A stretch of DNA of 64,000 nt from assembly GCA_013285405.1 (NCBI GenBank), contig CP053446.1, forward strand, positions 719,985 through 783,984, written 5' to 3'. Below the pieces are notes generated by a model. The model had not been told where the DNA came from and did not search any database. It was given only the letters and a program-made list of their open reading frames with translations. This stretch comes from Ignavibacteriota bacterium. GTDB lineage: Bacteria; Bacteroidota; Ignavibacteria; Ignavibacteriales; Ignavibacteriaceae. Position numbers and translations under genes: made by a program. Below are positions 10,587 to 32,838 of the stretch, piece after piece (position 1 is the first letter of the stretch; each line of letters begins with the position of its first letter).

Positions 10587-10956
10587 AATGTTTTTCCAAA
10601 AATAGAAAAATAATTAGAATGTTATTTGAAGCTCCGAAAAAAGATTCAATTTGCTTTTCTGAATAATTCTTGCATTTTATTAGCAGGTAATTTTTCTCTA
10701 CTCTGAGAGAGCAAGATTTACAGAGTATAGTTGCTGATTAAATTACAGAGATAACACACCAGACTACTCTTCCAAAGCAGACTATAAGTCGAATTTTTAT
10801 TTGTATTGGTCTTTTAGTCTTTACACTGATTTTACAACATCATGACAATTTATTGACAATCAGCTGTTCTTGACATTGTAGTTTTTCTTAAGAATTTATA
10901 ACTCAAAGTAATTTGAGCTAAGAATAATTATTCACCACAAAATATGGAGGTTCAAA
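10587..10956. other. Divergent intergenic region between the restriction enzyme and 5'-nucleotidase genes
   Basis: 370 bp without a coding frame. The left part should hold the promoter of the minus-strand restriction gene; no clear site is visible. The right part holds the three-unit 11-bp-spaced TnACAA array (10831-10859) and a further TTGACAT at 10870, then the GGAGG ribosome site of the nucleotidase gene. The rest is AT-rich and without repeats. Confidence 0.6.
10831..10859 (+). promoter_or_regulatory. Pho-box-like triple direct repeat upstream of the 5'-nucleotidase
   Basis: Three 7-bp units, TTTACAA (10831), ATGACAA (10842) and TTGACAA (10853), start exactly 11 bp apart with 4-bp spacers. 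Read on the other strand they are TTGTCAA/TTGTCAT, close to the known enterobacterial Pho-box half-site CTGTCAT with the same 7+4+7 geometry. The array ends 97 bp before the ATG of a phosphomonoesterase gene. Binding by a PhoB/OmpR-family regulator is inferred. Confidence 0.6.
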
Positions 10957-12870
10957 ATGTTCAAGTCTTTTTTTTACTGCTTTTTTTTAATAACAATCTT
11001 TTCAACAATTATACTCGCTCAAATGGACACAATAACAATTCTTCACGTCAACGATTCACATTCAACTCTTGAGGCAATCGGACCAAGAGATGCAAATCTT
11101 GAAGGAACTCAAGGTGGGATTAGTCGTGCAGCAACTGTAATTGGTATGACTAAAATGACTGAACAAAATGTTCTTACACTTCACGGCGGTGATGTTTTCA
11201 TCGGAGATTTTTTCTTCAACAAATTTCTTGGTGTTGCAGAGTTTCAGTTAATGGCTTCACTTGGCTTTGATGCAATGGCTGTTGGCAATCACGAGTTTGA
11301 TTTGACGCCTGCATATCTTGATACTGCTTTAAGAAATTCATTTCCACCAGGATATGGATTTCCATTAATCTCATCAAACGTGAATTTGGATGATCCGACA
11401 GTTCAGCCTTTAAAAGACTATATCTTTCCATTTATTACAAAACAAGTTGGTAATGTGAAAGTCGGAATGTTCAGTCTGTTAACTCCTGAAACAAATCTTT
11501 TCTCCCAGCCTGATTCAGCAAAAGTTAGTGATGATATTGCAGGAACTGCGCTTGTAATGATTGATACTTTGAACTCGCTTGGCTGTGATTTAATAATTTG
11601 TCTTTCACATCTTGGAATTTTTTATGATCAGGATTTGGCAGCCAACATTCCCGGAATAAATATTATTATCAGTGCTCACGACCATTTAAGAACTGATCAG
11701 CCTGTTGAAATTACAGATCCACTTGGTGGAACAACCTACATAGTTCAGGCTGATGCATTTTATAAATGTATTGGCAAAATGAAAATAGCCGTTTCTCAAT
11801 CCGGAATGGAATTGATTGATTACTCATTGATTAATCTTGATGAAACAATTCCTGAAGAGCCTACTGTTAAAGCAACTATTGATGGACTGATTGCTGAAAT
11901 TGAAAATACCTGGGGGCCTGTTTATTCCCAACAAATCGGAACAGCAACTGATTTCTTTGAAGAGGTTGCCACTAATCTTGGAGAGAATGGACCACACGAT
12001 ACTCCAATCGGAAATTTTGTTACAGATGCATATCGCTGGAAAACAGGAACTGAAATAGGAATTACTGTTGGCGGTTCAACCGCACAGCCAATTTATCAGG
12101 GACCGCTTGTTGGTGCTGATGCATTCAGAGTTGTTGGCTATGGTTTTAATGAAGTTAATGGACTCGGATTCAGAATTGTAAAATTTAAACTCACAGGCGC
12201 TGATCTGATTGCAGGATTAGAACTTGGTCTTTCAATGGCTGAATTCAACGATGAATTACTTCCACAGGTTTCGGGAATGAAATACTACTATAACCTTGCC
12301 AGACCATCTTTTTCTAGAATTGAATACGTTGAAGTCGGCGGGATTCCAATTGATCTTCAGCAGGAATATTATATAACCTCAAATGAATTTTTATTAATGG
12401 CATTGACACAAATGATTCCAACAATAAACATTATTGATTCTTCACTTTATGTTAATGATTCTGAGTTCCAGGTTCTTACTGAATATATTATTTCACAACA
12501 GACAATCTCTCCTATCACCAGAGGAAATATTGTAGCTGATATAAAAGAGATTGATGAAGGTGAAACACCAGGTCAATTCAGACTTGAACAGAACTATCCC
12601 AACCCATTCAATCCTTCAACTGTAATCGGTTATCAGTTACCGGTAAGCGGTTTTGTATCACTAATAGTTTACGATGTGCTTGGTAATGAAGTTGTCACAT
12701 TAGTGAATGAATACAAACCCGCAGGAAGTTATGAAGTAGAGTTCAGTGGTCATTCTGACGAAGGTCAGAACCTGCCTGCCGGTAGGCAAGGTCTTTCAAG
12801 TGGTGTTTACTTTTATCAACTGAAAGCAGAAAACTTTATTGAGACAAAAAAAATGTTGATGCTTAAGTGA
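10957..12870 (+). CDS. Secreted 5'-nucleotidase/UshA-like metallophosphatase with T9SS sorting domain
   Basis: A 637-residue protein with a signal peptide ending near LAQMDT (about residue 22). The metallophosphatase domain shows LHVNDSH at 29-35, HGGDV at 76-80, GNHEFD at 110-115 and SAHDH, followed by the typical 5'-nucleotidase C-terminal domain (about 320-530). It should release phosphate from nucleotides or related esters outside the cell. Residues from about 588 form a T9SS type A sorting domain (LEQNYPNPFNPS to ETKKMLMLK), so the protein is exported across the outer membrane and probably attached or released there. Within that domain DNA palindromes add HSDEGQNLPAGRQG before the SGVYFYQL strand. 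The ribosome site is ATGGAGGTT. The upstream Pho-box-like array fits induction on phosphate limitation. Confidence 0.88.
   Translation: MFKSFFYCFFLITIFSTIILAQMDTITILHVNDSHSTLEAIGPRDANLEGTQGGISRAATVIGMTKMTEQNVLTLHGGDVFIGDFFFNKFLGVAEFQLMASLGFDAMAVGNHEFDLTPAYLDTALRNSFPPGYGFPLISSNVNLDDPTVQPLKDYIFPFITKQVGNVKVGMFSLLTPETNLFSQPDSAKVSDDIAGTALVMIDTLNSLGCDLIICLSHLGIFYDQDLAANIPGINIIISAHDHLRTDQPVEITDPLGGTTYIVQADAFYKCIGKMKIAVSQSGMELIDYSLINLDETIPEEPTVKATIDGLIAEIENTWGPVYSQQIGTATDFFEEVATNLGENGPHDTPIGNFVTDAYRWKTGTEIGITVGGSTAQPIYQGPLVGADAFRVVGYGFNEVNGLGFRIVKFKLTGADLIAGLELGLSMAEFNDELLPQVSGMKYYYNLARPSFSRIEYVEVGGIPIDLQQEYYITSNEFLLMALTQMIPTINIIDSSLYVNDSEFQVLTEYIISQQTISPITRGNIVADIKEIDEGETPGQFRLEQNYPNPFNPSTVIGYQLPVSGFVSLIVYDVLGNEVVTLVNEYKPAGSYEVEFSGHSDEGQNLPAGRQGLSSGVYFYQLKAENFIETKKMLMLK
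12753..12791. repeat. Two adjacent palindromes inserted in the T9SS domain of the 5'-nucleotidase
   Basis: TTCTGAC (12753-12759), loop GAAG, GTCAGAA (12764-12770) is a perfect 7-bp hairpin. It is followed directly by CCTGCCTGCCGGTAGGCAAGG (12771-12791), whose core TGCCT...AGGCA is palindromic. Together they encode SDEGQNLPAGRQG, which is absent from the homologous sorting domains of the neighbouring genes. A diverged related hairpin (TGCCTGTTGGCA) lies just past the stop codon near 12885-12896. Confidence 0.7.
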
Positions 12871-13059: not shown

Positions 13060-14193
13060 ATGAATAACAATTATAAGCCAGCAGAATTTATTTTGCTGCT
13101 GATCATAAGTTTTAGTTCACAATCCTCAGCACAAACTGATACTACTGAACGAGCAGGTATTGAATTGTTCCCAATAATCAGCTACGATACCGATGCTGGA
13201 TTTGGTTACGGTGCAAAAGCATTTTTCTACAATCAATTTAATACTCAGGAAAGTTTTGACATTATTCTTTTCAACAGTACTAAAGGTGAACAATGGTACA
13301 AATTCGTTTTCTCAACTCCTGATTTTGAAAACCGGCAAGGAACTAAATTCCCGTTTGCACTAGATATTACCCTCGAATACGATAAATGGAAAAATTACAG
13401 GTTGTACTATTATGGTTGGGATAATCAATCATCGGACTTTTTGAATCCGGCTGTTGAATTTAATGATCTGGCAGCAAGTGAATATTTAGAGTCAAAAATA
13501 ATTTTAAACCATGCATTTCAATCCGATCTGACAGGTCTTCTGGCTTTTAAATTTAGTTCATTAAATATTTATGATATTAGGAGAGATGAGAATCTAACTA
13601 CTCCGGATAAAGTTGACAATAAACTTCTGGACGATCCGTCTGTTAAGTTTATCTCTATTAATATTAATGGCAAATGGGATACACGAAATAGCTTCATCAA
13701 TCCTTCAACTGGTCTCGTTCTCGAAATCGAACTTGAATACGCTCCTGATATACTTGATGACAACAGTTCTTTTTTCAGACAAGCATTTGTAGTTCGGTAC
13801 TTCACAGAAATATTTTTTGAGAATTTGATACTTGCCAGCAGAGCAATGGAACAAATTTCAATCCCTGAAGCCGGCTCATCAGAATTTTTAGCAATACCTG
13901 TTGGAGGCGGCAATACTCTACGCGGTGTCCCAATGGATAAATTCAGATTTAAATCTCTATTACTTTTTAATAATGAATTAAGATACAAGATCTGGTGGCG
14001 TTTCGGTGCAATTGCCGGACTGGATATCGGTTATGGTTCGAATAAAGATTTGTATCCTGAGAACACAATTAAGTGGATAGTTAATCCTGTTGCAGGTCTC
14101 AGATTCTTTATGGATAATTTTATTGTAAGAGCAGATGTTGGTTATTATAATGGCGATATCGGCTTTTACCTGAACTTCGGACATATTTATTAA
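13060..14193 (+). CDS. Outer-membrane beta-barrel protein, Omp85/BamA surface-antigen type
   Basis: A 377-residue protein with an N-terminal signal sequence (cleavage near SSAQTD, about residue 25). The rest consists of alternating amphipathic strands and ends in an aromatic residue (FYLNFGHIY), typical of outer-membrane barrels. GGGNTLRGVPMDKF at about 286-299 corresponds to the loop-6 RGY-type motif of Omp85 family barrels, followed by the strand NNELRYKIWW. No POTRA domains are present, so this is a short 'surface antigen' type barrel rather than BamA itself. It may help export or anchor surface proteins. No strong ribosome site is seen before ATG 13060. It stands alone between a terminator and a regulatory region. 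Confidence 0.75.
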   Translation: MNNNYKPAEFILLLIISFSSQSSAQTDTTERAGIELFPIISYDTDAGFGYGAKAFFYNQFNTQESFDIILFNSTKGEQWYKFVFSTPDFENRQGTKFPFALDITLEYDKWKNYRLYYYGWDNQSSDFLNPAVEFNDLAASEYLESKIILNHAFQSDLTGLLAFKFSSLNIYDIRRDENLTTPDKVDNKLLDDPSVKFISININGKWDTRNSFINPSTGLVLEIELEYAPDILDDNSSFFRQAFVVRYFTEIFFENLILASRAMEQISIPEAGSSEFLAIPVGGGNTLRGVPMDKFRFKSLLLFNNELRYKIWWRFGAIAGLDIGYGSNKDLYPENTIKWIVNPVAGLRFFMDNFIVRADVGYYNGDIGFYLNFGHIY

Positions 14194-14496
14194 TTTTTTG
14201 CAAACTGTTACTCACCTCTTGACAAATGCTTTTAAATGGACTATTTTATCCGATATACATCTATTCTCTAAGGAAAGGTTTTGATTGAACAAATCTTTAC
14301 CTGCTCTCCTCTCAATGTTCTGCTCTCCTTAGACCTGGATGCAGTTCTTAATGATGAGTTCTGTGTTTATGTCAACCAATTGATTTTTTTGTTGGAGGCT
14401 GGTTACGATTGAATTAATTGCCGTTCACGGTTTTTTACAAATGACTGACAATTTTATGACAATTTGTAACGGTCAATAGTATATAATTGAACCAAA
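14194..14496. other. Intergenic regulatory region ahead of the lipoprotein/phospholipase/lipase genes
   Basis: 303 bp with no plausible gene. It contains TTGACA near 14220 with a T-rich -10-like region, a distant inverted repeat (TCTAAGGA at 14267, TCCTTAGA at 14326), and the Pho-box-like array at 14434-14462. A TATAAT-like hexamer follows the array just before the ATG at 14497. Confidence 0.5.
14434..14462 (+). promoter_or_regulatory. Pho-box-like triple direct repeat
   Basis: TTTACAA (14434), CTGACAA (14445) and ATGACAA (14456) are spaced exactly 11 bp start to start with 4-bp spacers. A TATATAAT element lies about 18 bp downstream and the ATG of the lipoprotein gene is 34 bp after the array. 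It is the clearest of the five copies because of the good -10-like element. Confidence 0.6.
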
Positions 14497-14919
14497 ATGA
14501 AATCAGTTATGAAAAAAATTATTGAAATCACTCTTATCATTTCAATGGTGAACCTGCTCGGCTGTTATTATCAAGAGCAGATGACACCAGTCGCTTATGA
14601 TTTTGATGAACATTCAGATATCCAGGTATCGACATCCGATACTACTTACAAATTAATGGGTGATGATTATCATTTTGCTAATGATACTCTGTTTGCTACT
14701 CTATCGACAAAAATTGACCGACAAACAACGCTTAAAACTAATATTAAAATTCCAGAAGAGAATATCAAAAGTAATGAGATTGAAAGAACCGATACCGGTA
14801 TGACCATACTTCTTACAACGGGAATTTTGATTGGTGTACTTGGACATGCATTTGTTTTAGGCTTTGACATGCAATTAGATATAAAAGGTCCAGGTGAATC
14901 AAGTGGTAACTCTTTGTAA
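14497..14919 (+). CDS. Small lipoprotein of the DTG/GLI paralogue family (copy 1)
   Basis: A 140-residue protein with a lipoprotein signal ending in VNLLGCYYQ (lipidated Cys near residue 23). Next come YHFANDTLF-like beta segments and, at about 97-125, ERTDTGMTILLTTGILIGV, a DTG motif leading into a hydrophobic glycine-rich segment that may be a membrane span. The same plan (GCYY, YxF...NDTL, I..IE...DTG..., hydrophobic tail) occurs in the genes at 22946 and 24071 and in diverged form at 32839. Function unknown. It is the first gene behind the 14434 regulatory array and precedes the phospholipase-C-like gene by 45 bp. Confidence 0.7.
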   Translation: MKSVMKKIIEITLIISMVNLLGCYYQEQMTPVAYDFDEHSDIQVSTSDTTYKLMGDDYHFANDTLFATLSTKIDRQTTLKTNIKIPEENIKSNEIERTDTGMTILLTTGILIGVLGHAFVLGFDMQLDIKGPGESSGNSL

Positions 14920-14964
14920 CAAAATTACAATGCTACATCTATTAGAAGAGATGCAGGTGATAAA

Positions 14965-16476
14965 ATGAAAATCAGTATAATAATTTCATTCTACATATTG
15001 TTGACAACCGTCCTTGCTTTTCCGCACACTCAGCAAGTCCATCAGTACATAGTTACTGAAGCTTATCAGCTTTTAGTTAATCAATGGGGCAGCATCATTC
15101 CTGAAATGAATAATCACATCGGCGGAATTGGCCCGGAGTTTTATGGTGATTATGCCTGGCAAAGACCTTTTATCAGTACAGGTGCCTGGCGTGAAGATCA
15201 GGAAGATCCAATATTTAATTATGATTTCTTTTTTGTTCAGGGAGTAAACATTGCATTAGTAAGTATAACTCACTTCTGGGATGCTGACGATGGTGATCTT
15301 AATAAAAATCTTTTTCCAATTGTATTGCCATTTCCACCCTACCCTTCCGTTAATATTGGTCCATACGAAAATGCTTATGATAAATTATTGAGATATTCAA
15401 ATGGTGACTGGGTCTTATGGTTTCCTGATTCTATATGGTGTGTTAATAAGATGAATGGACATCAGCTTGTTATTATTCCAGACGTGGTCACGCCTCCGGC
15501 AAGATTCGGAATACCTTTAAAATATTTTTCAATAACCGAATTCTACAAATACCGTGAAATGAATTTGCTATCAGATCAGAATGGAGAATTTTTTGTGTTT
15601 GATCTTACCACACTTCAGTTCATTAATCCTGAAGAAGCACCAGAAATCATCGTGACAAATAACATCAGAGATAGAATTGCTTGGGAAGTTCTTGGAAGAA
15701 TGTGTCATCTTTTAGCAGATCAAAGTGTTCCTGCACATACGCACAGAGATGAACATGGTCTCCTTGCAGATAGCTATGAAAACTGGATGGGTGGATCAAG
15801 CCAGCCTTACTTACAATGGAATTATACTAATGCAGGAAATTTTATAAACCCATATACAACTGATAATGATCCACTACATTATCTGATTTATACAATGCAG
15901 CAGCAATCTGATCATTTCGGTAGCAATGGCCCTGATGAAATTGGAAACGGAAACAATAATTTATTTGGAAACTCCAAACCACAGGAATTAGTTTTTCTTA
16001 ATTCCTTAAACATTTCAAACTATGGTGAACCAACTTCCTGGAACGGACCCTGGAGTAATACAAATTTGGAGAACATTCGGGATAAAACTTTCCCTTATGC
16101 TATTCGTGCAACTGCAGGATTACTTTTTTGGTTTGCGAATGAGGTTGATCTTATTACAAACATTGAAGAAGCACAAGTAATTTTCCCAATTGATTTGATT
16201 CTTCATCAAAACTACCCCAACCCGTTTAATCCGAATACGGTGATCAGTTATCAGTTACCAGTAAGCAGTGATGTAACTTTAAAAATTTATGACGTACTTG
16301 GTAATGAAGTTGCCACGCTTGTTGATGACTACAAACTTGCAGGAAGTTATGAAGTTGAATTCAATGCTTCAACCTTACCGAGCGGAGTTTATTTCTATCA
16401 GTTAAGAACCAGAGGTCCTGAAATAAATTCAGGACAAGGAATAGTTGAAACTAAGAAGATGATTCTACTTAAATAA
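14965..16476 (+). CDS. Secreted zinc-dependent phospholipase C/S1-P1-like protein with T9SS sorting domain
   Basis: A 503-residue protein with a signal peptide (MKISIIISFYILLTTVLA). The mature N-terminus FPHTQQVHQYIVTEA, then GAWREDQED (73-81), THFWDADDGD (102-111) and GRMCHLLADQSVPAHTHRDE (244-263) supply the histidines and aspartates that bind the three-zinc cluster in zinc-dependent phospholipase C and S1/P1 nuclease folds. Hydrolysis of phospholipid or nucleic-acid phosphodiesters is therefore likely, though substrate is not decided. A T9SS type A domain starts near LHQNYPNPFNPN (about 412). Its last loop holds RTRGPEINSGQGI, encoded by a palindrome. It shares the upstream leader AGGTGATAAAATGAAAA with the gene at 21975. 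The LCAT-like lipase gene follows 38 bp later. Confidence 0.75.
   Translation: MKISIIISFYILLTTVLAFPHTQQVHQYIVTEAYQLLVNQWGSIIPEMNNHIGGIGPEFYGDYAWQRPFISTGAWREDQEDPIFNYDFFFVQGVNIALVSITHFWDADDGDLNKNLFPIVLPFPPYPSVNIGPYENAYDKLLRYSNGDWVLWFPDSIWCVNKMNGHQLVIIPDVVTPPARFGIPLKYFSITEFYKYREMNLLSDQNGEFFVFDLTTLQFINPEEAPEIIVTNNIRDRIAWEVLGRMCHLLADQSVPAHTHRDEHGLLADSYENWMGGSSQPYLQWNYTNAGNFINPYTTDNDPLHYLIYTMQQQSDHFGSNGPDEIGNGNNNLFGNSKPQELVFLNSLNISNYGEPTSWNGPWSNTNLENIRDKTFPYAIRATAGLLFWFANEVDLITNIEEAQVIFPIDLILHQNYPNPFNPNTVISYQLPVSSDVTLKIYDVLGNEVATLVDDYKLAGSYEVEFNASTLPSGVYFYQLRTRGPEINSGQGIVETKKMILLK
16415..16435. repeat. Palindrome inserted in the last loop of a T9SS domain
   Basis: GTCCTGAA (16415-16422) and TTCAGGAC (16428-16435) form a perfect 8-bp inverted repeat around ATAAA. 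It encodes GPEINSGQ between the conserved GVYFYQL and ETKKM blocks of the sorting domain, where paralogues have only a few residues. Confidence 0.7.
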
Positions 16477-16514
16477 TAATCGAACATACTCTTAAAAAGT
16501 GGAGGCAATATTTA

Positions 16515-18140
16515 ATGAATAAAAATTACATTTCTATATTTTTTATTTTGTTTATTAGTTTATTCAGCAATCCTCAGTCGTTCGAATCGAGCTCCCGACA
16601 AACTTTGATCTCAACTCCAGTTATTTATGTTCCCGGTATTATGGGCTCAGCGCTTTATGATGATATTAATTATGACAATAAACTTATTGCAGATGAAAAA
16701 GCATGGTTCGGTCCTCAATTTTTTACACATAGTTTATGGCTTAAGTCAAATGGAATTGATCCTGATGGTAACTATAATATTAAAGTTGCCCCGTTACGGA
16801 ATGACACTGCAAATACGTTAAGAGATGAATTGTTGAATGTACCTATGGATTTATTCAAAGGTTTTTTTGACAATATGGAAGCGAACGGATATTTGTTGGA
16901 TGATTACGATGATATCCATAATGAAGGAGAAAATTTATTTTGTTTTACTTACGACTGGAGAAAAAATAATTTAACAAATGCCGAACTATTATCTTTCTTC
17001 ATCGACAGTGTAAGGAACTGGACAGGAGCAAACCAGGTTAATCTTGTTGGTCATAGTATGGGAGGAATTGTTTCCAAAACCTGTATTAAGAACTTCGACA
17101 AATCAAGAATTAAAAATATGGTCTTTATTGCAACACCTCATTTAGGCGCTCCGGAAATGTTGACTGTAATGCTCAAGGGAAAACTTTTTGAATGGCTCAA
17201 TTTTGTTAATGAAATAGAATGGCTTGCTGCAAGATCGTTAGCCAGAAATTTACCTTCATGTTATCAGCTTATTCCTTCTTCCGGTTACTTTGACCTCAGC
17301 TTAAATAATGGCTTCTCCTCAAATATTAATATTTATTCAGAATGTTTTCAGATACCAAATGGAAATTTTGTTGATTACTCCGGATTGCTCAGCTATCTAT
17401 TATCATATCAGTCTTGTATAATAGAAGATTTGAACGATGGTCTTCTCAATAATTCTGAAGTATTCAAGCAATCAATAGATACATTAGATTTTGGGCAGGT
17501 TGAAGTAATTAACATTGTTGGTCATAACCAGTGGACAATAGGTAAAAACCGTGTGATTGATGGAGGTCCGCCATTATATTGCAAAACAATTGAATACTCC
17601 CGTAATCTGAATGGTGATTTTACAGTTCCGGTCAGAAGTGCTGAACTCATTAATGGACAAATATTTGAACACACTTACTATGTACCAAATATTCCCCATC
17701 ACGAAATGCCCGGATCGCTGGAAACTCTTGAAATTCTTCAGGGAATATTTGCTAATCCACCAAACTACAACTTCCCGCAATATTCTGAACCACCAGTAAG
17801 CTATAAAGATATTATTGTTAATGTTGAGAACGATCCTGATTTTCATAAATCATTTTATCTCTCTCAAAACTACCCAAACCCATTTAACCCAAGCACAAAA
17901 ATCAGTTGGCAGTCGCCAGTAGGCAGTTGGCAAACAATAAAAATTTACGACGTGCTTGGTAACGAAGTTGCAACATTAGTGAATGAATACAAACCTGCAG
18001 GAAGTTATGAAGTTGAATTCAATGCTTCACCGTTACCGAGTGGAGTTTATTTCTATCAATTGCTTGTCTCGGCTGGGCGAAGCCCAGACGTAAAAACTGA
18101 AAATTATATCGAGACGAAAAAGATGGTATTACTTAAATAA
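16515..18140 (+). CDS. Secreted LCAT-like lipase/acyltransferase with T9SS sorting domain
   Basis: A 541-residue protein with a signal peptide (MNKNYISIFFILFISLFS). The alpha/beta-hydrolase domain begins VIYVPGIMGSAL at about 36-47 (lid/oxyanion region of the lecithin:cholesterol acyltransferase family), has FTYDWRKN at 144-151, the nucleophile elbow GHSMGG at 179-184 (Ser181) and FIATPHLGAPE near 203-213. It should hydrolyse or transfer acyl chains of phospholipids or other lipids at the cell surface. The T9SS domain starts LSQNYPNPFNPSTK near 454. A palindromic insertion encodes LVSAGRSPDVKT in its last loop. The gene follows the phospholipase-C-like gene by 38 bp with a GTGGAGG ribosome site, so the two are likely co-expressed. 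Confidence 0.82.
   Translation: MNKNYISIFFILFISLFSNPQSFESSSRQTLISTPVIYVPGIMGSALYDDINYDNKLIADEKAWFGPQFFTHSLWLKSNGIDPDGNYNIKVAPLRNDTANTLRDELLNVPMDLFKGFFDNMEANGYLLDDYDDIHNEGENLFCFTYDWRKNNLTNAELLSFFIDSVRNWTGANQVNLVGHSMGGIVSKTCIKNFDKSRIKNMVFIATPHLGAPEMLTVMLKGKLFEWLNFVNEIEWLAARSLARNLPSCYQLIPSSGYFDLSLNNGFSSNINIYSECFQIPNGNFVDYSGLLSYLLSYQSCIIEDLNDGLLNNSEVFKQSIDTLDFGQVEVINIVGHNQWTIGKNRVIDGGPPLYCKTIEYSRNLNGDFTVPVRSAELINGQIFEHTYYVPNIPHHEMPGSLETLEILQGIFANPPNYNFPQYSEPPVSYKDIIVNVENDPDFHKSFYLSQNYPNPFNPSTKISWQSPVGSWQTIKIYDVLGNEVATLVNEYKPAGSYEVEFNASPLPSGVYFYQLLVSAGRSPDVKTENYIETKKMVLLK
18066..18089. repeat. Palindrome inserted in the last loop of the lipase T9SS domain
   Basis: CTGGGC (18073-18078), loop GAA, GCCCAG (18082-18087) forms a perfect 6-bp hairpin within GTCTCGG...AC, which adds two outer pairs across a bulge. 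It encodes VSAGRSPD between GVYFYQL and ETKKM. It has locally high G+C in an AT-rich gene. Confidence 0.65.
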
Positions 18141-18174
18141 TATTTTATTAAAAATTTATTTAGCGAGGTGTAAA

Positions 18175-21100
18175 ATGAAATATATAATATATACCCTAAT
18201 GTTAGTTTTGATGTTGATTTGTTCAATAGTCTATCCGCAAAAACCGGAGATGCTCAACAAACCAACTTCAACTGTTGGTGATCCGATACGGGCTTATCTG
18301 AACTTGAATAATATTTCTACAATTTTTAAGAATGATGGTATTTCGGATATAGATTATTACGAATCCAACTCTGGGTTTACATTCCCGAAAGGTACAGGTA
18401 AGACTGCGGTTTTTATGTCAGGTTTATTATGGGGTGCTAATCTAAATAGATCGGGAGAAGTTGATCCACATGTCGGAGGTTCAGTGTATAGAACAGGATT
18501 ACAAGGTGGTAAAATATTATCACCTGGTATACCAGAAGATTTTAATCTTCCGCACGTGAGAATTTATAGAGTACGACCTGATGTTTATCCTGGTGGGCCT
18601 TGGGTAGATTTATCTGTTGAAGCATACGATGAAAATAAAACTGAATTTGAAATCAGAACTCAGTATGAAGTGGATTGGGTTGAGTGGAGAGCTCAAGATG
18701 GTGCCCCTTTTAAAGATGTTGATGAAGATGGAAATTATAATCCAAATGTGGATGTACCAGGAATATCAGGTGCAGCACAAACAATCTGGTTTGTCGCCAA
18801 TGATCTTGATGCTGCAAGAACAACTTTTATGTACGGTACAATGCCTATGGGAATTGAGTACCAGGCAACATACTGGGAATATCACAATGGGAGTTTTCTC
18901 GATAATTTATTTTTTAGAAAATACAAGCTGATTAATAAAAGTGATGTTGCATTTTCTGATATGTATATATCAATGTGGTCTGACCCTGATATTGGCAATT
19001 CAGGTGATGATTTCGTTGGCTGTGATACAACGCTGAATATAATCTATGCTTACAATGGATATGAATATGATCCCGTTTACGATGATTATCCGCCGCCTGC
19101 AATTGGTTTTGATTTGTTGAAAGGTCCAACTATTCAAGGAAATCAAATTCTTCCCATGACGGCTGCATATTATTTCACACAGAATCATCCCGAATTAACT
19201 GATCCAGTTCAAGGTTCTTATCCTGAAGGAGCTGTACGTTTTTATAATTTCATGCAAGGACTAATCGGATTAACCGGAGAACCATTTATTAATCCAACTA
19301 CCGGGCTTCCAACTAGTTATACATTGTCTGGTAACCCATTGACGGGAGAAGGTTGGATTGACGGGGATCCTTATGGACCCGGAGATAGAAGAGTTGGATT
19401 AGCTTCTGGTCCCTTTACGATGGCAGTTGGTGATACACAAGAAATAGTAATTGCAGAAATTGCTGCAATTGGTTTTAACAGACTTCAAGCTTATAGAATT
19501 TTAAAATATTATGACGCATTAACACAGGAAGCATTTGATAACGGTCTTCAGAACATCGCAAATATGCCACCCAGAACAGAAGTGCCCGAGGCAGTGGTTA
19601 CCGGCACCAGCTGGAAAATAAAATTGAACTGGGGATTAGATACTGCTTCAGTTCAATCAATAGAAAATTTTAATCAGAACGGATATGAGTTCCAGGGTTA
19701 CAATGTTTATCAATTAGCAAGTCCTCTACCAATCAAAGAAAATGCAGTGAGAATTGCAACTTTTGATAAAGTTGATGGAGTAACTGAAATAGAAGGCATA
19801 GTGATGGATCCTGAAACTGGGTTGCCCGTAAACGGTATTCAACAATTTGGATCTGATTCAGGAATTGAAAGATCATTACTAACAAATTATGACTACGTTG
19901 AGAATACACATATGAGAGTTGGTAAAAAGTATTATTTCGCTGTTACTGCATATACATATAATTTTGATCCGCTTGCCGTTCCAAATAATTCAGAAAGTTT
20001 ATTAGAAGTAATTGAAGCTGTATTTTATGATAGCCTAGGAGGAGCTAGTTATGGTGATTCAATTCTGGTAACACATTCACAAGGAAGTGGTGATGGGAAG
20101 GTGTATGTGGTGGTAGATGATCCAACACAACTTACAGGTGATGACTATGAAGTCTTCTTCAATCAACAGCAGTATTATCGCAACGAATTTGGTGAGTGGG
20201 TACCAGGATTCCCAGGACGACCAAGTGGTCCGGATACTTTAACAGGTTCATCAATTAGTATGGCTGCCACATACGGTCCTGTTGCTGGTAGTCTGGAAAT
20301 CAGTTGTTTATTAGATCTTGTAAGTCCTGATAATAATTGGGCTGATGGTATCACTTTAACTTTCCCAGTGGGAACTACGATAATTGAAGCTATTCCATTT
20401 AATGCAAACAATGGATATATAGTTCCTGAGATAGTTGGCAATACTTTAAATCTTGGAATCGTAAATGGTCCGCCAACAGGTAACGGTGCATTTACAGGAG
20501 GTGAAGAGTGGAAGGTATCTATAATGCCATATCAATTACCTCTAACGGTTGAATGGATAATTTATGATGATGGCTATTCGGGAGGAACTGTTAATGCTGT
20601 TGGTTATACTGAAATCACTTCGGTTGGATATGCAACAAAAATTGAAGATCATTGGAATGTTCTTAATCTTACAACTCAGGATACAGTGCTGGAAGATCAA
20701 ACTGTGATAATGGGTTACGATCTTTACACAGGAGAATATGTTGGTGATCCAGTTGCTGAAGGTTTTAAAATCTCAGTCGATGTTAATTACGAAAAACCAA
20801 AAACGATGGGTAGTGTTTTAGTTAATGGAACTGAACTTTCTTATTCTGAAGGTAATTTTTGGTGGACAGGAGATAATTTTACTGTTTGTGATTTTACCAT
20901 GTTCGGTTATGAGGATGGTTATGCTGCAACTTCATTACCGGTCTATGGCGGAGCTGGTGGGACAACAAATATAAATGTACTCCAGCAAGATTTAGAATTC
21001 CGTTGGACGGGTATCCTAATTGATACAATTGCGAACGGTGTCAATATAACTATTACTTCATCAGGAGGTTCAATTGCAACTTTATTTGGAGCCAGCACAT

Positions 21101-21771
21101 ATGATCTTACATATCATCCAATGAATCCAAATTATGGTTTTTCAGATGAGCCATTTACAGTCCGTGTTCCTTTTGAAGTGTGGAATGTGGATCAAAATCA
21201 GCAGGTCAATCTTGTATTCTGGGATAGGTCTGGTAATCCAACTATTAGTGGCGGTGCAGTTTGGAATCAAACAAACAGAGTTTATACATGGGTAGTAAAC
21301 ACTTCATATAGTCCTGATCTAATTGACGTAACTTCACAAATGGTTGCAGATAATGCAACATGGAATGTCGTTTATTATTTATCCACCTTTTCTCTGAATG
21401 ATTTAGTTTATATAACCTATAATAATCCAACCCAATTTGGCATTGATCTGTTTAATTTCACCACACCTGAACCTGTAGTATCAGTTAATGACGAAACTAT
21501 TCCAACAAGGTTTCAGGTTTTTCAGAACTATCCAAATCCTTTTAATCCCTTAACCGTTATCAGATTTACTCTGCCCCATCAGAGTTTAGTTAAATTGAAT
21601 ATTTACAATATACTTGGTGAACGAGTTGCACAATTGGTAAACACGGAACTTAACGCTGGCATACACGAGGTTGTATTTAATGGTCATAATCTTGCAAGCG
21701 GAGTTTATTTCTATTCATTAGATGTTCAGAATAAATTCTTTGAAGTAAAGAAAATGATTTTGATAAAATAG
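18175..21771 (+). CDS. Large secreted T9SS protein, function unknown
   Basis: A 1198-residue protein with a signal peptide (core LMLVLMLICSIVYPQ). A long N-terminal region starting KPEMLNKPTSTVGDPI is of a type I associate with Ignavibacteria exported proteins. Middle segments such as WKIKLNWGLDT...YEFQGYNVYQLASP look like fibronectin type III or other beta-sandwich repeats. The C-terminus is a T9SS type A sorting domain (FQNYPNPFNPLTV to VKKMILIK), without palindromic insertion. No enzyme motif is visible, so a structural or adhesive surface role is inferred. It follows the lipase gene by 34 bp with a GCGAGGTGT ribosome site and is probably the last gene of that transcription unit. Confidence 0.75.
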   Translation: MKYIIYTLMLVLMLICSIVYPQKPEMLNKPTSTVGDPIRAYLNLNNISTIFKNDGISDIDYYESNSGFTFPKGTGKTAVFMSGLLWGANLNRSGEVDPHVGGSVYRTGLQGGKILSPGIPEDFNLPHVRIYRVRPDVYPGGPWVDLSVEAYDENKTEFEIRTQYEVDWVEWRAQDGAPFKDVDEDGNYNPNVDVPGISGAAQTIWFVANDLDAARTTFMYGTMPMGIEYQATYWEYHNGSFLDNLFFRKYKLINKSDVAFSDMYISMWSDPDIGNSGDDFVGCDTTLNIIYAYNGYEYDPVYDDYPPPAIGFDLLKGPTIQGNQILPMTAAYYFTQNHPELTDPVQGSYPEGAVRFYNFMQGLIGLTGEPFINPTTGLPTSYTLSGNPLTGEGWIDGDPYGPGDRRVGLASGPFTMAVGDTQEIVIAEIAAIGFNRLQAYRILKYYDALTQEAFDNGLQNIANMPPRTEVPEAVVTGTSWKIKLNWGLDTASVQSIENFNQNGYEFQGYNVYQLASPLPIKENAVRIATFDKVDGVTEIEGIVMDPETGLPVNGIQQFGSDSGIERSLLTNYDYVENTHMRVGKKYYFAVTAYTYNFDPLAVPNNSESLLEVIEAVFYDSLGGASYGDSILVTHSQGSGDGKVYVVVDDPTQLTGDDYEVFFNQQQYYRNEFGEWVPGFPGRPSGPDTLTGSSISMAATYGPVAGSLEISCLLDLVSPDNNWADGITLTFPVGTTIIEAIPFNANNGYIVPEIVGNTLNLGIVNGPPTGNGAFTGGEEWKVSIMPYQLPLTVEWIIYDDGYSGGTVNAVGYTEITSVGYATKIEDHWNVLNLTTQDTVLEDQTVIMGYDLYTGEYVGDPVAEGFKISVDVNYEKPKTMGSVLVNGTELSYSEGNFWWTGDNFTVCDFTMFGYEDGYAATSLPVYGGAGGTTNINVLQQDLEFRWTGILIDTIANGVNITITSSGGSIATLFGASTYDLTYHPMNPNYGFSDEPFTVRVPFEVWNVDQNQQVNLVFWDRSGNPTISGGAVWNQTNRVYTWVVNTSYSPDLIDVTSQMVADNATWNVVYYLSTFSLNDLVYITYNNPTQFGIDLFNFTTPEPVVSVNDETIPTRFQVFQNYPNPFNPLTVIRFTLPHQSLVKLNIYNILGERVAQLVNTELNAGIHEVVFNGHNLASGVYFYSLDVQNKFFEVKKMILIK

Positions 21772-21838: not shown

Positions 21839-21867
21839 AAGACATTTTTTTGACAAAACCATGACAA
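21839..21867 (+). promoter_or_regulatory. Pho-box-like triple direct repeat upstream of the small-lipoprotein operon
   Basis: AAGACAT (21839), TTGACAA (21850) and ATGACAA (21861) are 11 bp apart with 4-bp spacers. The first unit is the weakest. The array ends 107 bp before ATG 21975. No convincing -10 is seen at fixed distance. Confidence 0.5.
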
Positions 21868-21974: not shown

Positions 21975-22376
21975 ATGAAAAGAATACTAATAACTCTGTC
22001 TTTATTAATGTCATTACTCCTCATTTCCTGCGATCAGAATGAAGCAATCGTAGATTCCGACACGGATACTGTAATCCAGAACTTATCATTCGTTGTCGAT
22101 ACAACTTTTCTAGATTCAGCAAATGATAGACTCGTTGCCAAAGGTACTGTTAAAAATCATGGGAACTCAAAAGTTACATCGCCATGGTATGTAGAGTGTC
22201 AGTTTTATACAAATTCATCAAAAACGACTAAACTCGGTGGTAACTATACACAAATTGGAGTTCCGTTAGCGAAGAGCGAATCAACCTTTTGGACAATTAC
22301 ATATTCATCTTCAAACGTGAATGTAAATGATTATCCAAATTTTGCTGTTGGTAACATAAGAGGAATTTATAAATAA
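21975..22376 (+). CDS. Small lipoprotein with FxLYD-like beta-sandwich
   Basis: A 133-residue protein with a lipobox at LLLISCDQN (Cys near residue 19). The mature domain reads LVAKGTVKNHGNSKVTSPWY, then a short strand pair ending in YPNFAVGNIRGIYK. The 'G-x-V-x-N-x-G' strand followed by an aromatic strand resembles FxLYD/DUF3426-type sandwich domains found in bacterial lipoproteins. The ribosome site is CAGGTGATAAA. It is the first gene behind the 21839 regulatory array. Function unknown; possibly a binding module on the periplasmic or outer face. Confidence 0.65.
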   Translation: MKRILITLSLLMSLLLISCDQNEAIVDSDTDTVIQNLSFVVDTTFLDSANDRLVAKGTVKNHGNSKVTSPWYVECQFYTNSSKTTKLGGNYTQIGVPLAKSESTFWTITYSSSNVNVNDYPNFAVGNIRGIYK

Positions 22377-22419
22377 CTATCCTTGATTTTAATAAAGAAT
22401 ATTTATAGGAGAATTTCAG

Positions 22420-22929
22420 TTGATAGAATTATTTAAAAAATCTTTACTAGTTTCAAGCGTGGTTATTCTGACGCAAATCAATTTGATTGCTCAAAGCACA
22501 ACATCTTCTATAAAACAAAACCAGCTCTATCTTGAGTTGGGTGGTAATGGTATGATTTACTCAATCAACTATGAACGATCACTCTCTGAAAATTTTACTC
22601 TTCGCGGCGGTTTTGGTATTACACCCGGATTAATTTTTGCAGAAGGAACTTTTATACATATCCCCGTGACTGCCAGTTATCTAATCGGCGGTGTGTCTTC
22701 GAAATTCGAAACCGGGCTTGGTGTAACATACTTTGCAGGAACTGACATCGAAGTTTTTGGTTTACCTTCGGATGATCAATCTTTGATTTTTTTAACAGGT
22801 ATAGTTGGATATAGATATATAAGCCCTGGTGGATTTGTATTTCGGATTGCATTTACTCCCTTCTACAATAGTCAAGCTGAACCGAATTTTATACCAAGCG
22901 GCGGTTTGAGCTTTGGTTTTATGTTTTAA
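22420..22929 (+). CDS. Outer-membrane beta-barrel protein (TTG start)
   Basis: A 169-residue protein. The start is TTG at 22420, chosen because AGGAG lies 8 bp upstream and it gives a complete signal peptide (MIELFKKSLLVSSVVILTQ, cleavage after LIAQ). The mature part (QLYLELGGNGMIYSINYERS, FTLRGGFGITPG, and so on to GGLSFGFMF) has eight or so amphipathic strands and a terminal Phe, as in small eight-stranded barrels. It lies 43 bp after the FxLYD-like lipoprotein gene and overlaps or abuts the next lipoprotein gene, so an operon is likely. No enzymatic motif. Confidence 0.7.
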   Translation: MIELFKKSLLVSSVVILTQINLIAQSTTSSIKQNQLYLELGGNGMIYSINYERSLSENFTLRGGFGITPGLIFAEGTFIHIPVTASYLIGGVSSKFETGLGVTYFAGTDIEVFGLPSDDQSLIFLTGIVGYRYISPGGFVFRIAFTPFYNSQAEPNFIPSGGLSFGFMF

Positions 22930-22945
22930 TCTCAGTGAGATAGTA

Positions 22946-23368
22946 ATGTTTGGAAGAAAAATGATTAACATAATGAACATATCAATATTGATAGTCTCAT
23001 TATTGAACTTCGTTGGATGTTATTCATCAGAAAAAATTCTAAAAGAAGATATTATTAATGGAATTTCAAAACCAGATCCAAAGGAAGAAATTTTTATAAC
23101 AACTATGGACTCAATCAAATATCACTTCAACGCATATAATTATCAATTGCTGAATGACACAATTTATGGTCAGGGCAAATCGAGTAAAAATGGAATTGAA
23201 TCTCCCTTCGATGGTAAAATTTCTGTTGATCATATTTTGATAATTGAACAAAATCAGGCTGACACGGGAACTACCACAGGTTTGATATTAGGTATAATGG
23301 CGGTAGGTGTAGTGGCAGCAGGATTACTAATACTTGCACTTATGTCGGATGTATTTAATCCTGATTAA
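22946..23368 (+). CDS. Small lipoprotein of the DTG/GLI paralogue family (copy 2)
   Basis: About 140 residues from ATG 22946 (alternative ATG 22961; the frame is open further upstream to 22913 but that would overlap the barrel gene). The signal ends in LLNFVGCYSS with the lipidated Cys near residue 26. The mature part has YHFNAYNYQLLNDTIYGQG, a beta segment, then LIIEQNQADTGTTTGLILGI and a hydrophobic tail. It aligns by eye with the genes at 14497 and 24071. Only 5 bp separate its stop codon from the next ATG. Function unknown. Confidence 0.68.
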   Translation: MFGRKMINIMNISILIVSLLNFVGCYSSEKILKEDIINGISKPDPKEEIFITTMDSIKYHFNAYNYQLLNDTIYGQGKSSKNGIESPFDGKISVDHILIIEQNQADTGTTTGLILGIMAVGVVAAGLLILALMSDVFNPD

Positions 23369-23373
23369 CTAAA

Positions 23374-23994
23374 ATGAACGTTTTAATAAATATTACCGTT
23401 GTATTTATAATGTCCCTCCTGAATGGATTCTGCTATTGTTGGTCAGGTATTGAAATGAAGACTAGTACGAAAAACAATATTCAAATAGTTTTTCATTCTT
23501 TAAATGAAGATGCGGGAGAAAAGCTATTTCAATCTTTTAATTATCAAAAAATAATCTTGCTTTCAGGATTTCCTGAATTAAGTCTGGAATATTCAGTTGG
23601 TGTAAGTAAACAAAATCAGGATTTAATGCCTGAATTATTTGACTTTAATATTTTTAAGAAAAAATTTCCAATGAACCGGAATATACTTCGAATAGAACGG
23701 AAGGACCGGACTACATCGCAAGGAAGCCACAACTTTGTCCTCTTTGAAACTCTTGGAATTAATTCCGGGGTGTTCAGCAGGAAGAGACCAGATAATATAA
23801 AAACATCCGGATATGAATTCCGAATGAAAGGGTTCTTTATGATGCTGGATGATTGCTCGAATGATTCTGTAATAAATTTTATATCCGATCATATTGATAT
23901 CAGGTTTTTCAGATCTGAATTTTCAGCTAATAACTTTGCTAAAGTTGAATTAAAAGGAATCAATTTTGTTTTTAGTGGATTTAATCTTTATTAA
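23374..23994 (+). CDS. Hypothetical secreted protein
   Basis: A 206-residue protein with a hydrophobic N-terminus (MNVLINITVVFIMSLLNGFCYCW) that may be a signal peptide or anchor. The rest is a soluble domain with no recognised motif (IVFHSLNEDAGEKLFQSFNY, several Phe-rich strands). It starts 5 bp after the stop codon of the upstream lipoprotein gene, so it is translated from the same message. No clear Shine-Dalgarno site, consistent with coupling. Function unknown. Confidence 0.6.
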   Translation: MNVLINITVVFIMSLLNGFCYCWSGIEMKTSTKNNIQIVFHSLNEDAGEKLFQSFNYQKIILLSGFPELSLEYSVGVSKQNQDLMPELFDFNIFKKKFPMNRNILRIERKDRTTSQGSHNFVLFETLGINSGVFSRKRPDNIKTSGYEFRMKGFFMMLDDCSNDSVINFISDHIDIRFFRSEFSANNFAKVELKGINFVFSGFNLY

Positions 23995-24070
23995 AATATT
24001 GAAACAAACAAAACAAATTATCCGGTTTCAGTAATGATTTTTAATTAACATTAAATTAAAGGAGACAGAA

Positions 24071-24475
24071 ATGCTTAAAAAATATTTTGTAATGATTCTC
24101 ATCCTATCAACTCTCAATTTAACAAGCTGTTATTATTCAGCTGTGATGAGCAAAGAAGAACTGGATAAGGGTCAATATCAATTAGATTTCAAGGATGAAC
24201 TTTTCTGTACAACTAAGGACTATACCAGATATCATTTTTCTCCAGGAAATTTTTCAGTCTCTAATGATTCACTTTTTGGTAAAGGAGCAATTGAAAGTCT
24301 TACCCCAATTAGTCCGTTTCAAGGATCGATTCCGATAAGTGATATAATCAGCTTTGAACAGAAAAAGGTCGATACTGGGGCAACCATTGGTTTAATTGCA
24401 GGAGTTGTGGTTGTTGCTGCACTTGTATTCACCTTAATTATTGCCGCTGAAATCGAAGACGATCTTATTCAATAG
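24071..24475 (+). CDS. Small lipoprotein of the DTG/GLI paralogue family (copy 3)
   Basis: A 134-residue protein with the signal ending LNLTSCYYSAVMS (Cys near residue 20). The mature part contains DELFCTTKDYTRYHF, NDSLFGKGAIE, SPFQGSIPISDIISFEQ and KVDTGATIGLIAGVVVV, followed by a hydrophobic stretch and a charged C-terminal tail. It is the clearest representative of the family shared with 14497 and 22946. The ribosome site is AAAGGAGACAGAA. The barrel lipoprotein gene follows 11 bp later. Function unknown; envelope location is secure. Confidence 0.72.
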   Translation: MLKKYFVMILILSTLNLTSCYYSAVMSKEELDKGQYQLDFKDELFCTTKDYTRYHFSPGNFSVSNDSLFGKGAIESLTPISPFQGSIPISDIISFEQKKVDTGATIGLIAGVVVVAALVFTLIIAAEIEDDLIQ

Positions 24476-24486
24476 AAAGGAGTAAA

Positions 24487-25479
24487 ATGAAAATGAAAAA
24501 CATAATTATTTTTTTAAGTTTCCTGCCTATCTTAATTATTGTAATATCTGGCTGCACCACAATAGAAACGCTTTATCTACAGGATGTAGAAGTAACAGGT
24601 CCAATTAACCAATCTCCTATTCACATCACAGATAGTACTGAAACTCCAGCAGTTACACTATCAATGCGGTTCTCATACAATCCTGAAAAAGAAATCAAAG
24701 CTCAATCCGAAGGAACACCTTTGGTCAATTCTGAAGGATTTTATCAAGCGGATACAGTATATTATAACAATGGTACAATTTCTTACCAAAGAAGTATTGA
24801 AAACCGATTTCAATATAAAGGACAAAATCTGACCTGGAAATTTGCAACAGTAACTGCAGGACTTGATTTTGATTTTAAACTCTCAAGAAACTTTGCACTC
24901 TTTGCCGGAGTTAATTATGCCGGAGGAAATAATAAATCATTATGGGGAGGAACAGGAGGCATCGGATTATTTGGAGTAAAAAATGGGATGGCTTTCAGGT
25001 TTGATGTTGGATTCCACGTTCAGAGCATTTCATATGATGCACACACTATTGCTGAAGTTAGTACGACTGATTTTTGGGGTTCTACAGATGAATATGTTAT
25101 GTTCTATCATGATATTAGCGATGAAACCTATTTTGATCCATTTATAAATTTTACATTCAATACAGCAAAAAAAGATTGGATAATTAATTTATTTTTTAAC
25201 GGAGGGTACAGCGTTCAGTCTTTACTCGACTTTGAGCCACAAACAATTGACTATGATTGGTTCTTCTTTCCACCATTCGTATTTAACGAAACAATTACTC
25301 AAGATTTTCGAGGTGAAACAACAGCAAGTTTCGCACACTTTACACCAGGCGTTTACTTCATTTTGGGAGAACAGAGCCGATTACTTGTTGGCGCCAGATT
25401 TTTCTATGAAACTCAATTGAAAGATCCTTCACAGAATTTATTCATTCTGCCAATGATGCAGATAGATTTTACGTTCTGA
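24487..25479 (+). CDS. Outer-membrane barrel-like lipoprotein
   Basis: A 330-residue protein with a lipobox at VISGCTTIE (Cys near residue 23). From about residue 110 onward it shows repeated amphipathic strands (TAGLDFDFKLSRNFALFAGV, MAFRFDVGFHV, DWIINLFFNGGYSV, SRLLVGARFFYE) and ends in MMQIDFTF, as barrels do. A lipid-anchored outer-membrane barrel is inferred. It follows the copy-3 small lipoprotein gene by 11 bp with an AAAGGAGTAAA ribosome site, so the pair are co-translated. No enzymatic residues seen. Confidence 0.65.
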   Translation: MKMKNIIIFLSFLPILIIVISGCTTIETLYLQDVEVTGPINQSPIHITDSTETPAVTLSMRFSYNPEKEIKAQSEGTPLVNSEGFYQADTVYYNNGTISYQRSIENRFQYKGQNLTWKFATVTAGLDFDFKLSRNFALFAGVNYAGGNNKSLWGGTGGIGLFGVKNGMAFRFDVGFHVQSISYDAHTIAEVSTTDFWGSTDEYVMFYHDISDETYFDPFINFTFNTAKKDWIINLFFNGGYSVQSLLDFEPQTIDYDWFFFPPFVFNETITQDFRGETTASFAHFTPGVYFILGEQSRLLVGARFFYETQLKDPSQNLFILPMMQIDFTF

Positions 25480-25565
25480 TGATTAATATTATGCAAAGAA
25501 GGTTTACAATTAATTTGTTAAGTTTTCCTAAAACCAAATTCATACAATTTCCATAGGTAAAAAAG

Positions 25566-27176: not shown

Positions 27177-27187
27177 GAGGTCAGAAA

Positions 27188-28162: not shown

Positions 28163-28243
28163 ATACTGTTTTGTTTGAACAATAACAATTTCTTCTTTAC
28201 TATTTGATAGTCGTAATTTAAAAGATTATGTAAGGAAAGGATT

Positions 28244-29974: not shown

Positions 29975-29991
29975 TTAAATGGAAAAAGAAT

Positions 29992-32065: not shown

Positions 32066-32094
32066 CAGACATGTATTTTACAATTCCATGACAT
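32066..32094 (+). promoter_or_regulatory. Pho-box-like triple direct repeat upstream of the barrel/lipoprotein operon
   Basis: CAGACAT (32066), TTTACAA (32077) and ATGACAT (32088) are spaced 11 bp with 4-bp spacers. TTTTAATTTACATTTTG downstream could hold the promoter's -10/-7 element. The array ends 49 bp before ATG 32144. Confidence 0.5.
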
Positions 32095-32143
32095 CTACGC
32101 CGCTGTTTTAATTTACATTTTGAGCAGATAAAAGGAACTTAAC

Positions 32144-32818: not shown

Positions 32819-32838
32819 AATTCTTTTAGAGAAATAAA

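What the first reader, a model, noticed from the sequence alone, without database searches (positions are those of the whole stretch)
10831..10859. A five-site Pho-box-like regulon: three TnACAA units at exact 11-bp steps
Five plus-strand promoters (10831, 14434, 21839, 31314, 32066) each carry three 7-bp units at exactly 11-bp steps, consensus TTTACAA-n4-yTGACAA-like, at 34-107 bp before the start codon. On the reverse strand this is TTGTCA-n5-TTGTCA, the same geometry as the known CTGTCAT-n4-CTGTCAT Pho box. The first unit is upstream of a 5'-nucleotidase, the second of a phospholipase-C-like and a lipase gene. PhoB-type control has not, to my knowledge, been described with this motif in Ignavibacteria, and it would place several unknown envelope genes in a phosphate-starvation response.
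Basis: partly seen in the sequence, partly recalled or inferred. Interest (0 to 1): 0.82.

Follow-up and report, generated by a model that had tools for sequence, protein, structure and literature searches.

The report
Promoter repeats of an orphan envelope regulon
The five repeat arrays are real bacterial on-switches that line up to the base with the promoter, but they most likely answer to the two-component regulator encoded beside them rather than to the phosphate regulator PhoB, and they turn on secreted nucleotidases, outer-membrane proteins and, in relatives, membrane-lipid genes.

Summary
All five arrays exist, at exact 11-bp steps, plus strand only, 34-107 bp before a start codon; the first has four units. 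Genome-wide, a search including a downstream -7 box gives nine sites with at most 1 mismatch, none with 2, then chance level. Five of the nine lie within 25 kb of one OmpR-family response regulator (35015-35695, minus). In 60 aligned sites from this genome and relatives a Bacteroidota -7 box (TAnnTTTG) sits at one fixed distance, 19 nt after the third unit (49/60; at most 5/60 at any other offset): class-II activator layout. Across 159 genomes arrays occur in 24 (control 0) and co-occur with the neighbouring PDZ-7TM histidine kinase (p = 2e-6); in six species an array heads the kinase operon itself. PhoB is a different gene (281222), and the pst operon has a different array (TTAAC). No TKACA array precedes pst genes (0/83 versus 5/26). 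So: not PhoB. Yet targets (secreted 5'-nucleotidase; in relatives BtaA-like, DAG-kinase and SPT-like lipid genes) leave a PhoB-independent phosphorus-sparing or envelope response open.

The parts
10820..10859 (+). Array 1: four units TTTACAC/TTTACAA/ATGACAA/TTGACAA at 11-bp steps
   Evidence: fourth unit at 10820 found here
10879..10886 (+). -7 box TAGTTTTT, 19 nt after array 1
10957..12870 (+). Secreted 5'-nucleotidase-type metallophosphoesterase with T9SS C-terminal tail; most conserved target of the arrays
13060..14193 (+). Omp85-family outer-membrane protein, second gene after array 1
14434..14462 (+). Array 2: TTTACAA/CTGACAA/ATGACAA
14482..14489 (+). -7 box TATAATTG, 19 nt after array 2
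14497..21771 (+). Genes after array 2: 140-aa lipoprotein-like, 503-aa T9SS-tail protein (phospholipase-like by eye only), LCAT/lipase with T9SS tail, 1198-aa T9SS-tail protein
21839..21867 (+). Array 3: AAGACAT/TTGACAA/ATGACAA
21887..21894 (+). -7 box TACAATTG, 19 nt after array 3
21975..30705 (+). Genes after array 3: 133-aa lipoprotein-like (conserved first gene in relatives), small envelope proteins, matrixin/TPR protein, acyl-CoA ligase, SDR
31314..31342 (+). Array 4: CTTACGA/TTTACAT/CTGACAA
31362..31369 (+). -7 box TAAGTTTC, 19 nt after array 4
31412..31867 (+). Exported HEAT-repeat protein after array 4
32066..32094 (+). Array 5: CAGACAT/TTTACAA/ATGACAT
32114..32121 (+). -7 box TACATTTT, 19 nt after array 5
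32144..34981 (+). 224-aa exported (barrel-like) protein plus 529-aa and 221-aa proteins; same gene order after an array in relatives
35015..35695 (-). OmpR/PhoB-family response regulator, proposed binder of the arrays; 157 bits to the Bacteroidota PhoB model with cut-off 270, so not PhoB
35747..36652 (-). Receiver + guanylate-cyclase-type catalytic domain
36630..39110 (-). Sensor histidine kinase: TM helix, periplasmic PDZ-like domain, about 7 TM helices, GAF, HisKA, HATPase

Best explanation
The arrays are the binding sites of the OmpR-family response regulator encoded at 35015-35695, partner of the PDZ-7TM histidine kinase at 36630-39110. When the kinase senses its signal (unknown), the phosphorylated regulator binds three head-to-tail half-sites (TTACA, TKACA, TGACA, 11 bp apart) on the coding strand. 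The third half-site overlaps the -33 region, which lacks a good TTTG element, and holds RNA polymerase on a TAnnTTTG -7 box 19 nt further on: class-II activation. It switches on nine promoters in this genome (five in the window) for secreted 5'-nucleotidase, T9SS-exported hydrolases, outer-membrane proteins and lipoproteins; in relatives also its own operon and membrane-lipid genes. Shown: arrays, fixed -7 spacing, conservation, physical linkage and co-occurrence with the two-component system, distinct Pho-type array at pst. Inferred: binding, phosphorylation, activation direction. Physiological role, less certain (about 0.35): a phosphorus-sparing or envelope-lipid remodelling response independent of PhoB. 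The confidence given is for the regulator and promoter mechanism.
For: Nine sites at 0-1 mismatch of array plus -7, none at 2, chance at 3. -7 box at one offset in 49/60 sites against at most 5/60 elsewhere; A at that column in 59/60, not used to train the matrix. Five of nine own sites within 25 kb of this regulator, p about 4e-8. 59 relatives: regulator orthologue and arrays overlap in 17 of 21 (Fisher 2e-8). Class level: arrays in 24/159 genomes, control 0/159; kinase in 50/159; 18 overlap, p = 2e-6, ten genomes with array 1-6 kb from the kinase. 18 of 22 loci around kinase homologues fetched by the kinase alone carry arrays, 0 in 1 Mb shuffled (about 7 of the 22 overlap the training genomes). 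Arrays head the kinase-containing operon in six species: G002, G004, G017, G030, G046, isolate IGN3. PhoB candidate identified elsewhere; predicted box at pst is TTAAC. Recognition helix of this regulator (RTVDNFILNLR) differs from PhoB's (RTIDVHIRKIR).
Against: No binding or expression data. Another regulator of the genome (1964903) has a similar recognition helix (NFIVKLR); its relatives also appear in many genomes without arrays, but this was not tested formally. Three relatives (G023, G027, G034) have the regulator but no exact array; four (G003, G014 incomplete; G021, G037 weak hits) have arrays without it, and 32 of 50 class-level genomes with the kinase show no array at the threshold used. 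In this genome no array stands before the kinase operon itself.
Confidence: 0.83

Rival explanations
1. One reading: the arrays are Pho boxes bound by PhoB and the genes belong to the classical Pho regulon.
For: Same 11-bp direct-repeat geometry as Pho boxes (review PMC4415409); first target is a 5'-nucleotidase; regulator families are related.
Against: Genome's PhoB candidate is at 281222 beside a PhoR-like kinase; pst operon has a different array, TTAAC x4, and -7 spacing of 10 nt after TTAAC instead of 20 nt after TGACA; 0/83 TKACA sites before pst genes against 5/26 TTAAC sites, p = 6e-4; arrays track the window's own two-component system instead.
Confidence: 0.04
2. PhoB-independent phosphorus-sparing regulon: same regulator as in the best explanation, but the signal is phosphate or phospholipid limitation; it adds secreted nucleotidases and replaces phospholipids by phosphorus-free lipids. 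(A reading of the role, compatible with the best explanation of the mechanism.)
For: 5'-nucleotidase is the target in about 17 species; in G030, G009 and isolate IGN3 an array drives DAG kinase then a DUF3419+PEMT fusion, the domain annotated on betaine-lipid synthases (PMC10685587); SPT-like, UbiA, SDR, DAG-kinase operons in about five species. Betaine lipids accumulate in phosphorus-starved bacteria (PMC4796936).
Against: No pst or alkaline phosphatase among targets; BtaA-like gene seen in only three species and no NCBIfam match confirms it; SPT/UbiA cluster could serve another lipid; the window has no BtaA.
Confidence: 0.35
3. Envelope-stress regulon: the DegS-like PDZ domain of the kinase senses misfolded or mis-sorted outer-membrane or T9SS protein C-termini and induces outer-membrane and secreted proteins. 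(A reading of the role, compatible with the best explanation of the mechanism.)
For: Predicted PDZ resembles DegS/AlgW/HtrA PDZ (E about 5e-3 to 2e-2); targets rich in exported proteins (63/83 first genes signal-like by a crude test), OMPs, M48 protease.
Against: PDZ match is below Pfam's cut-off (25.1 against 27) and Foldseek E-values are weak; lipid-synthesis targets are not explained; no chaperones such as Skp, SurA or DegP noticed among targets.
Confidence: 0.3
4. Chance AT-rich repeats or a mobile repeat element without regulatory role.
For: AT-rich genome; degenerate first units at three sites.
Against: Controls near 0, fixed -7 distance, conservation before orthologous genes in many genera.
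Confidence: 0.01

Closest known systems
PhoB / Pho box (E. coli) and PhoP box (B. subtilis), OmpR/PhoB family
   Same: Direct repeats, 7+4 = 11-bp units; head-to-tail binding; array taking the place of the upstream promoter element; OmpR-family winged-helix regulator.
   Different: Unit is TKACA(A/T), not TTAACA (this genome's own predicted Pho box); three units with fixed identity at the variable base (T, G/T, G); regulator and targets are not PhoB/pst; spacing to -7 differs.
Bacteroidota sigma-ABfr promoter (TTTG at -33, TAnnTTTG at -7)
   Same: -7 box TAnnTTTG (PMC7366714) is present at fixed distance; purine-rich column where the start site would lie.
   Different: -33 TTTG is replaced by the third repeat unit.
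ComP-type PDZ + multi-TM histidine kinases (from memory)
   Same: N-terminal TM, extracytoplasmic PDZ-like domain, multi-TM bundle, kinase.
   Different: Has a GAF domain, HisKA-type core, OmpR-family and guanylate-cyclase-type response regulators; no peptide gene noticed nearby. Not tested as a family member.
BtaA/BtaB betaine-lipid synthesis
   Same: DUF3419 domain fused to a phospholipid-methyltransferase domain, next to DAG kinase, under an array in relatives.
   Different: Not found in this window; no NCBIfam match; activity untested.

Membership tests
PhoB regulon (Pho boxes) | Sites precede pst and other phosphate genes | tested here: not met
   0/83 TKACA sites before Pst genes; own four non-window sites precede M48 protease, DUF3857/transglutaminase protein, lipoprotein and a GMC-oxidoreductase-like operon
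PhoB regulon (Pho boxes) | pst promoter carries the same motif | tested here: not met
   pst carries TTAAC x4, conserved in relatives
PhoB regulon (Pho boxes) | Direct repeats of about 11 bp | tested here: met
PhoB regulon (Pho boxes) | Linked or co-occurring regulator is PhoB | tested here: not met
   Co-occurs with the 35015-35695 regulator, 157 bits to the Bacteroidota PhoB model, cut-off 270; PhoB candidate scores 234 and lies at 281222
PhoB regulon (Pho boxes) | Induced by phosphate starvation | not testable with these tools
   needs RNA-seq
OmpR/PhoB-family class-II activated promoter | Tandem half-sites overlapping the upstream promoter element at fixed distance from the core box | tested here: met
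   49/60 sites with -7 box at one offset
OmpR/PhoB-family class-II activated promoter | Regulator with receiver and Trans_reg_C domains genetically linked | tested here: met
OmpR/PhoB-family class-II activated promoter | Phosphorylated regulator binds the sites and activates | not testable with these tools
   no binding data
Bacteroidota sigma-ABfr promoter | -7 TAnnTTTG | tested here: met
   columns +47..+54 of the alignment
Bacteroidota sigma-ABfr promoter | -33 TTTG | tested here: not met
   position occupied by the third repeat (ACAA)

The most novel reading that the evidence does not exclude
Ignavibacteriota run two parallel, base-distinguishable tandem-repeat regulons: PhoB on TTAAC arrays for phosphate uptake, and a PDZ-7TM-kinase system on TKACA arrays that senses membrane or envelope phosphorus/lipid status and induces nucleotide scavenging plus replacement of phospholipids by betaine- and sphingolipid-like lipids.
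Probability: 0.3. Interest if true: 0.72.

Novelty: new variant of a known kind. Interest (0 to 1): 0.56.

Why it matters
It gives, from sequence alone, a base-resolution promoter code for a regulon shared across a largely uncultured phylum, with a named candidate regulator, sensor and targets. It shows that '11-bp TGTCA-like repeats' do not imply PhoB, and it supplies the likely true Pho box of these bacteria (TTAAC arrays) as an internal control. If the lipid targets are confirmed, it would make phosphorus-free membrane remodelling in Ignavibacteria directly testable.

Tried and rejected
PhoB as regulator: rejected (TTAAC box at pst, no pst targets, arrays track another regulator). Sites with 2 mismatches to the three-unit pattern without the -7 box: at control level, rejected as noise; so were 2-unit TKACAA hits inside genes (113411, 627419, 898257, 3457370, and the 3462974 hit inside an ORF). 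Phospholipase-C identity of the 14965-16476 protein: no Pfam, NCBIfam or PDB support beyond the T9SS tail. GPCR matches of the 7TM model: generic helix bundles, TM about 0.35, not used. Literature searches for this motif or promoter type in Ignavibacteria returned nothing relevant; only open-access papers were searchable.

Full report
Observation. The first has a fourth unit at 10820. Distances to the start codons are 97, 34, 107, 69 and 49 bp. There are no such arrays on the minus strand of the window.

More than chance. Across the complete 3.86-Mb genome the exact three-unit pattern has 7 hits and 0 in the reversed control. Adding the -7 box found later, there are nine sites with 0-1 mismatches, none with 2, and then control-level noise at 3. 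Five of the nine are in the window, at genome positions 730816-752103; the others are at 353821, 919648, 1335539 and 2109047. In 59 relatives, exact arrays give about 57 hits against 1 in the control; at class level 24 of 159 genomes have array plus -7 box, with 0 of 159 in the control.

Architecture. Sixty non-redundant sites from this genome and relatives were aligned on the array only. The consensus is yTTTACAAttccaTGACAAttccnTGACAA. Downstream, outside the columns used to find the sites, a TAnnTTTG-like box begins at position +47 in 49 of 60 sites, while no other offset exceeds 5 of 60; the A of the box is present in 59 of 60. A purine-rich column follows at +59/+60, where transcription would start. 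TAnnTTTG is the known -7 element of Bacteroidota promoters, with TTTG near -33 (PMC7366714). Here the third unit (TGACAA) occupies the -33 position. This is the layout of a class-II activator promoter (inference from layout; no expression data).

Which regulator. The genome has four full-length OmpR-family regulators, at 281222, 755002 (the window gene 35015-35695), 1964903 and 2117643. The window gene sits 3 kb from array 5, with a receiver-guanylate cyclase gene and a histidine kinase. Its orthologues (240 bits or more) and exact arrays coincide in 17 of 21 array-bearing genomes among 59 relatives (Fisher 2e-8), often on the same contig. At class level, the kinase (profile of its N-terminal half) and arrays overlap in 18 of 24 genomes, p = 2e-6, and in ten genomes the nearest array is 1.1-6.0 kb from the kinase. 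These tests do not correct for shared ancestry, but the genomes span many genera and families. Of 22 loci fetched from public genomes by the kinase alone, 18 carry arrays, with none in 1 Mb of shuffled sequence; about seven of the 22 belong to genomes used in the matrix, the rest are new. In six species (G002, G004, G017, G030, G046 and isolate IGN3) an array heads the operon that contains the kinase, which is what positive autoregulation would look like.

Not PhoB. The 281222 regulator scores 234 bits on the Bacteroidota PhoB model against 157 for the window regulator (cut-off 270), and its neighbour is a PhoR/PnpS-like kinase. Neither passes the curated cut-off, so 'PhoB' is the best candidate, not a certainty. 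The pst operon (pstS, OprP-like porin, pstC, pstA, pstB, phoU, named from order, the PstB match and sequence) has a different array: TTAACATACAT TTAACCCTTCC TTAACAATTCC TTAAC, the only such array in the genome. In relatives TTAAC arrays have a -7 box 10 nt after the last TTAAC and precede PstS, the porin or a TonB-type outer-membrane protein. Pst-operon genes follow 5 of 26 TTAAC sites and 0 of 83 TKACA sites (p = 6e-4); three weak PstB matches among TKACA targets are MacB/FtsX-associated ABC ATPases. The recognition helices differ: RTVDNFILNLR against RTIDVHIRKIR.

What it controls. The most conserved target is the secreted 5'-nucleotidase-type metallophosphoesterase, found after arrays in about 17 species. 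Others are the 224-aa exported protein, Omp85-family proteins, small lipoproteins and T9SS-tail proteins. In relatives, arrays also precede operons with SPT/BioF-like oxoamine synthase, UbiA, DAG kinase, AIR-synthase-like kinase, SDR and radical-SAM genes, and, in three species, DAG kinase followed by a DUF3419-PEMT fusion. DUF3419 is the domain annotated on betaine-lipid synthase (PMC10685587), and betaine lipids replace phospholipids in phosphorus-starved bacteria (PMC4796936). In this genome the window operon contains an acyl-CoA ligase and SDR whose close relatives sit in the lipid cluster of G002.

The sensor. The kinase has one TM helix, a PDZ-like extracytoplasmic domain and about seven further TM helices before GAF and kinase domains. 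The AlphaFold model (mean pLDDT 78) matches DegS/HtrA/AlgW PDZ domains weakly (E about 5e-3 to 2e-2), which would fit sensing of protein C-termini. The signal is unknown.

Status. Shown: arrays, fixed promoter geometry, nine-site regulon, conservation, linkage to the two-component system, separate Pho-type array at pst. Inferred: DNA binding by the window regulator, activation, signal. The organism belongs to the Ignavibacteriota: the closest public kinase homologues are Ignavibacteriota/Ignavibacteriaceae MAGs.

Noticed in passing
L071:14813-14990 (genome 3405867-3405904), and L197-L224: Pst promoter with TTAAC x4 at 11-bp steps; same TTAAC x3 arrays with -7 box 10 nt later in 23 of 59 relatives before pstS, OprP-like porin or TonB-type proteins: candidate Pho box of Ignavibacteriales, distinct from the array in the finding.
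   Followed up: partly
window 35747-36652 (-): Receiver domain fused to a guanylate/adenylate-cyclase-type catalytic domain between kinase and DNA-binding regulator: the system may also make a cyclic nucleotide.
   Followed up: no
L157:5278-7161, L140/L141, L175: DUF3419 + PEMT fusion downstream of DAG kinase: possible single-protein betaine-lipid synthase in Ignavibacteria under array control.
   Followed up: partly
L149:1762-8456, L150, L151, L186, L193: Conserved SDR-UbiA-DAG kinase-AIRS-like-SPT/BioF-radical SAM cluster under arrays; product unknown.
   Followed up: partly
L139:17991-18338 and 18434-19876: 5'-nucleotidase gene of relative G030 appears split into two ORFs (possible frameshift in the MAG).
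   Followed up: no
L075:4698-7589 (-), site at 919673; L074:7715-9784 (-), site at 353846: Two of the four regulon sites outside the window precede a DUF3857/transglutaminase/TPR exported protein and an M48 peptidase.
   Followed up: no
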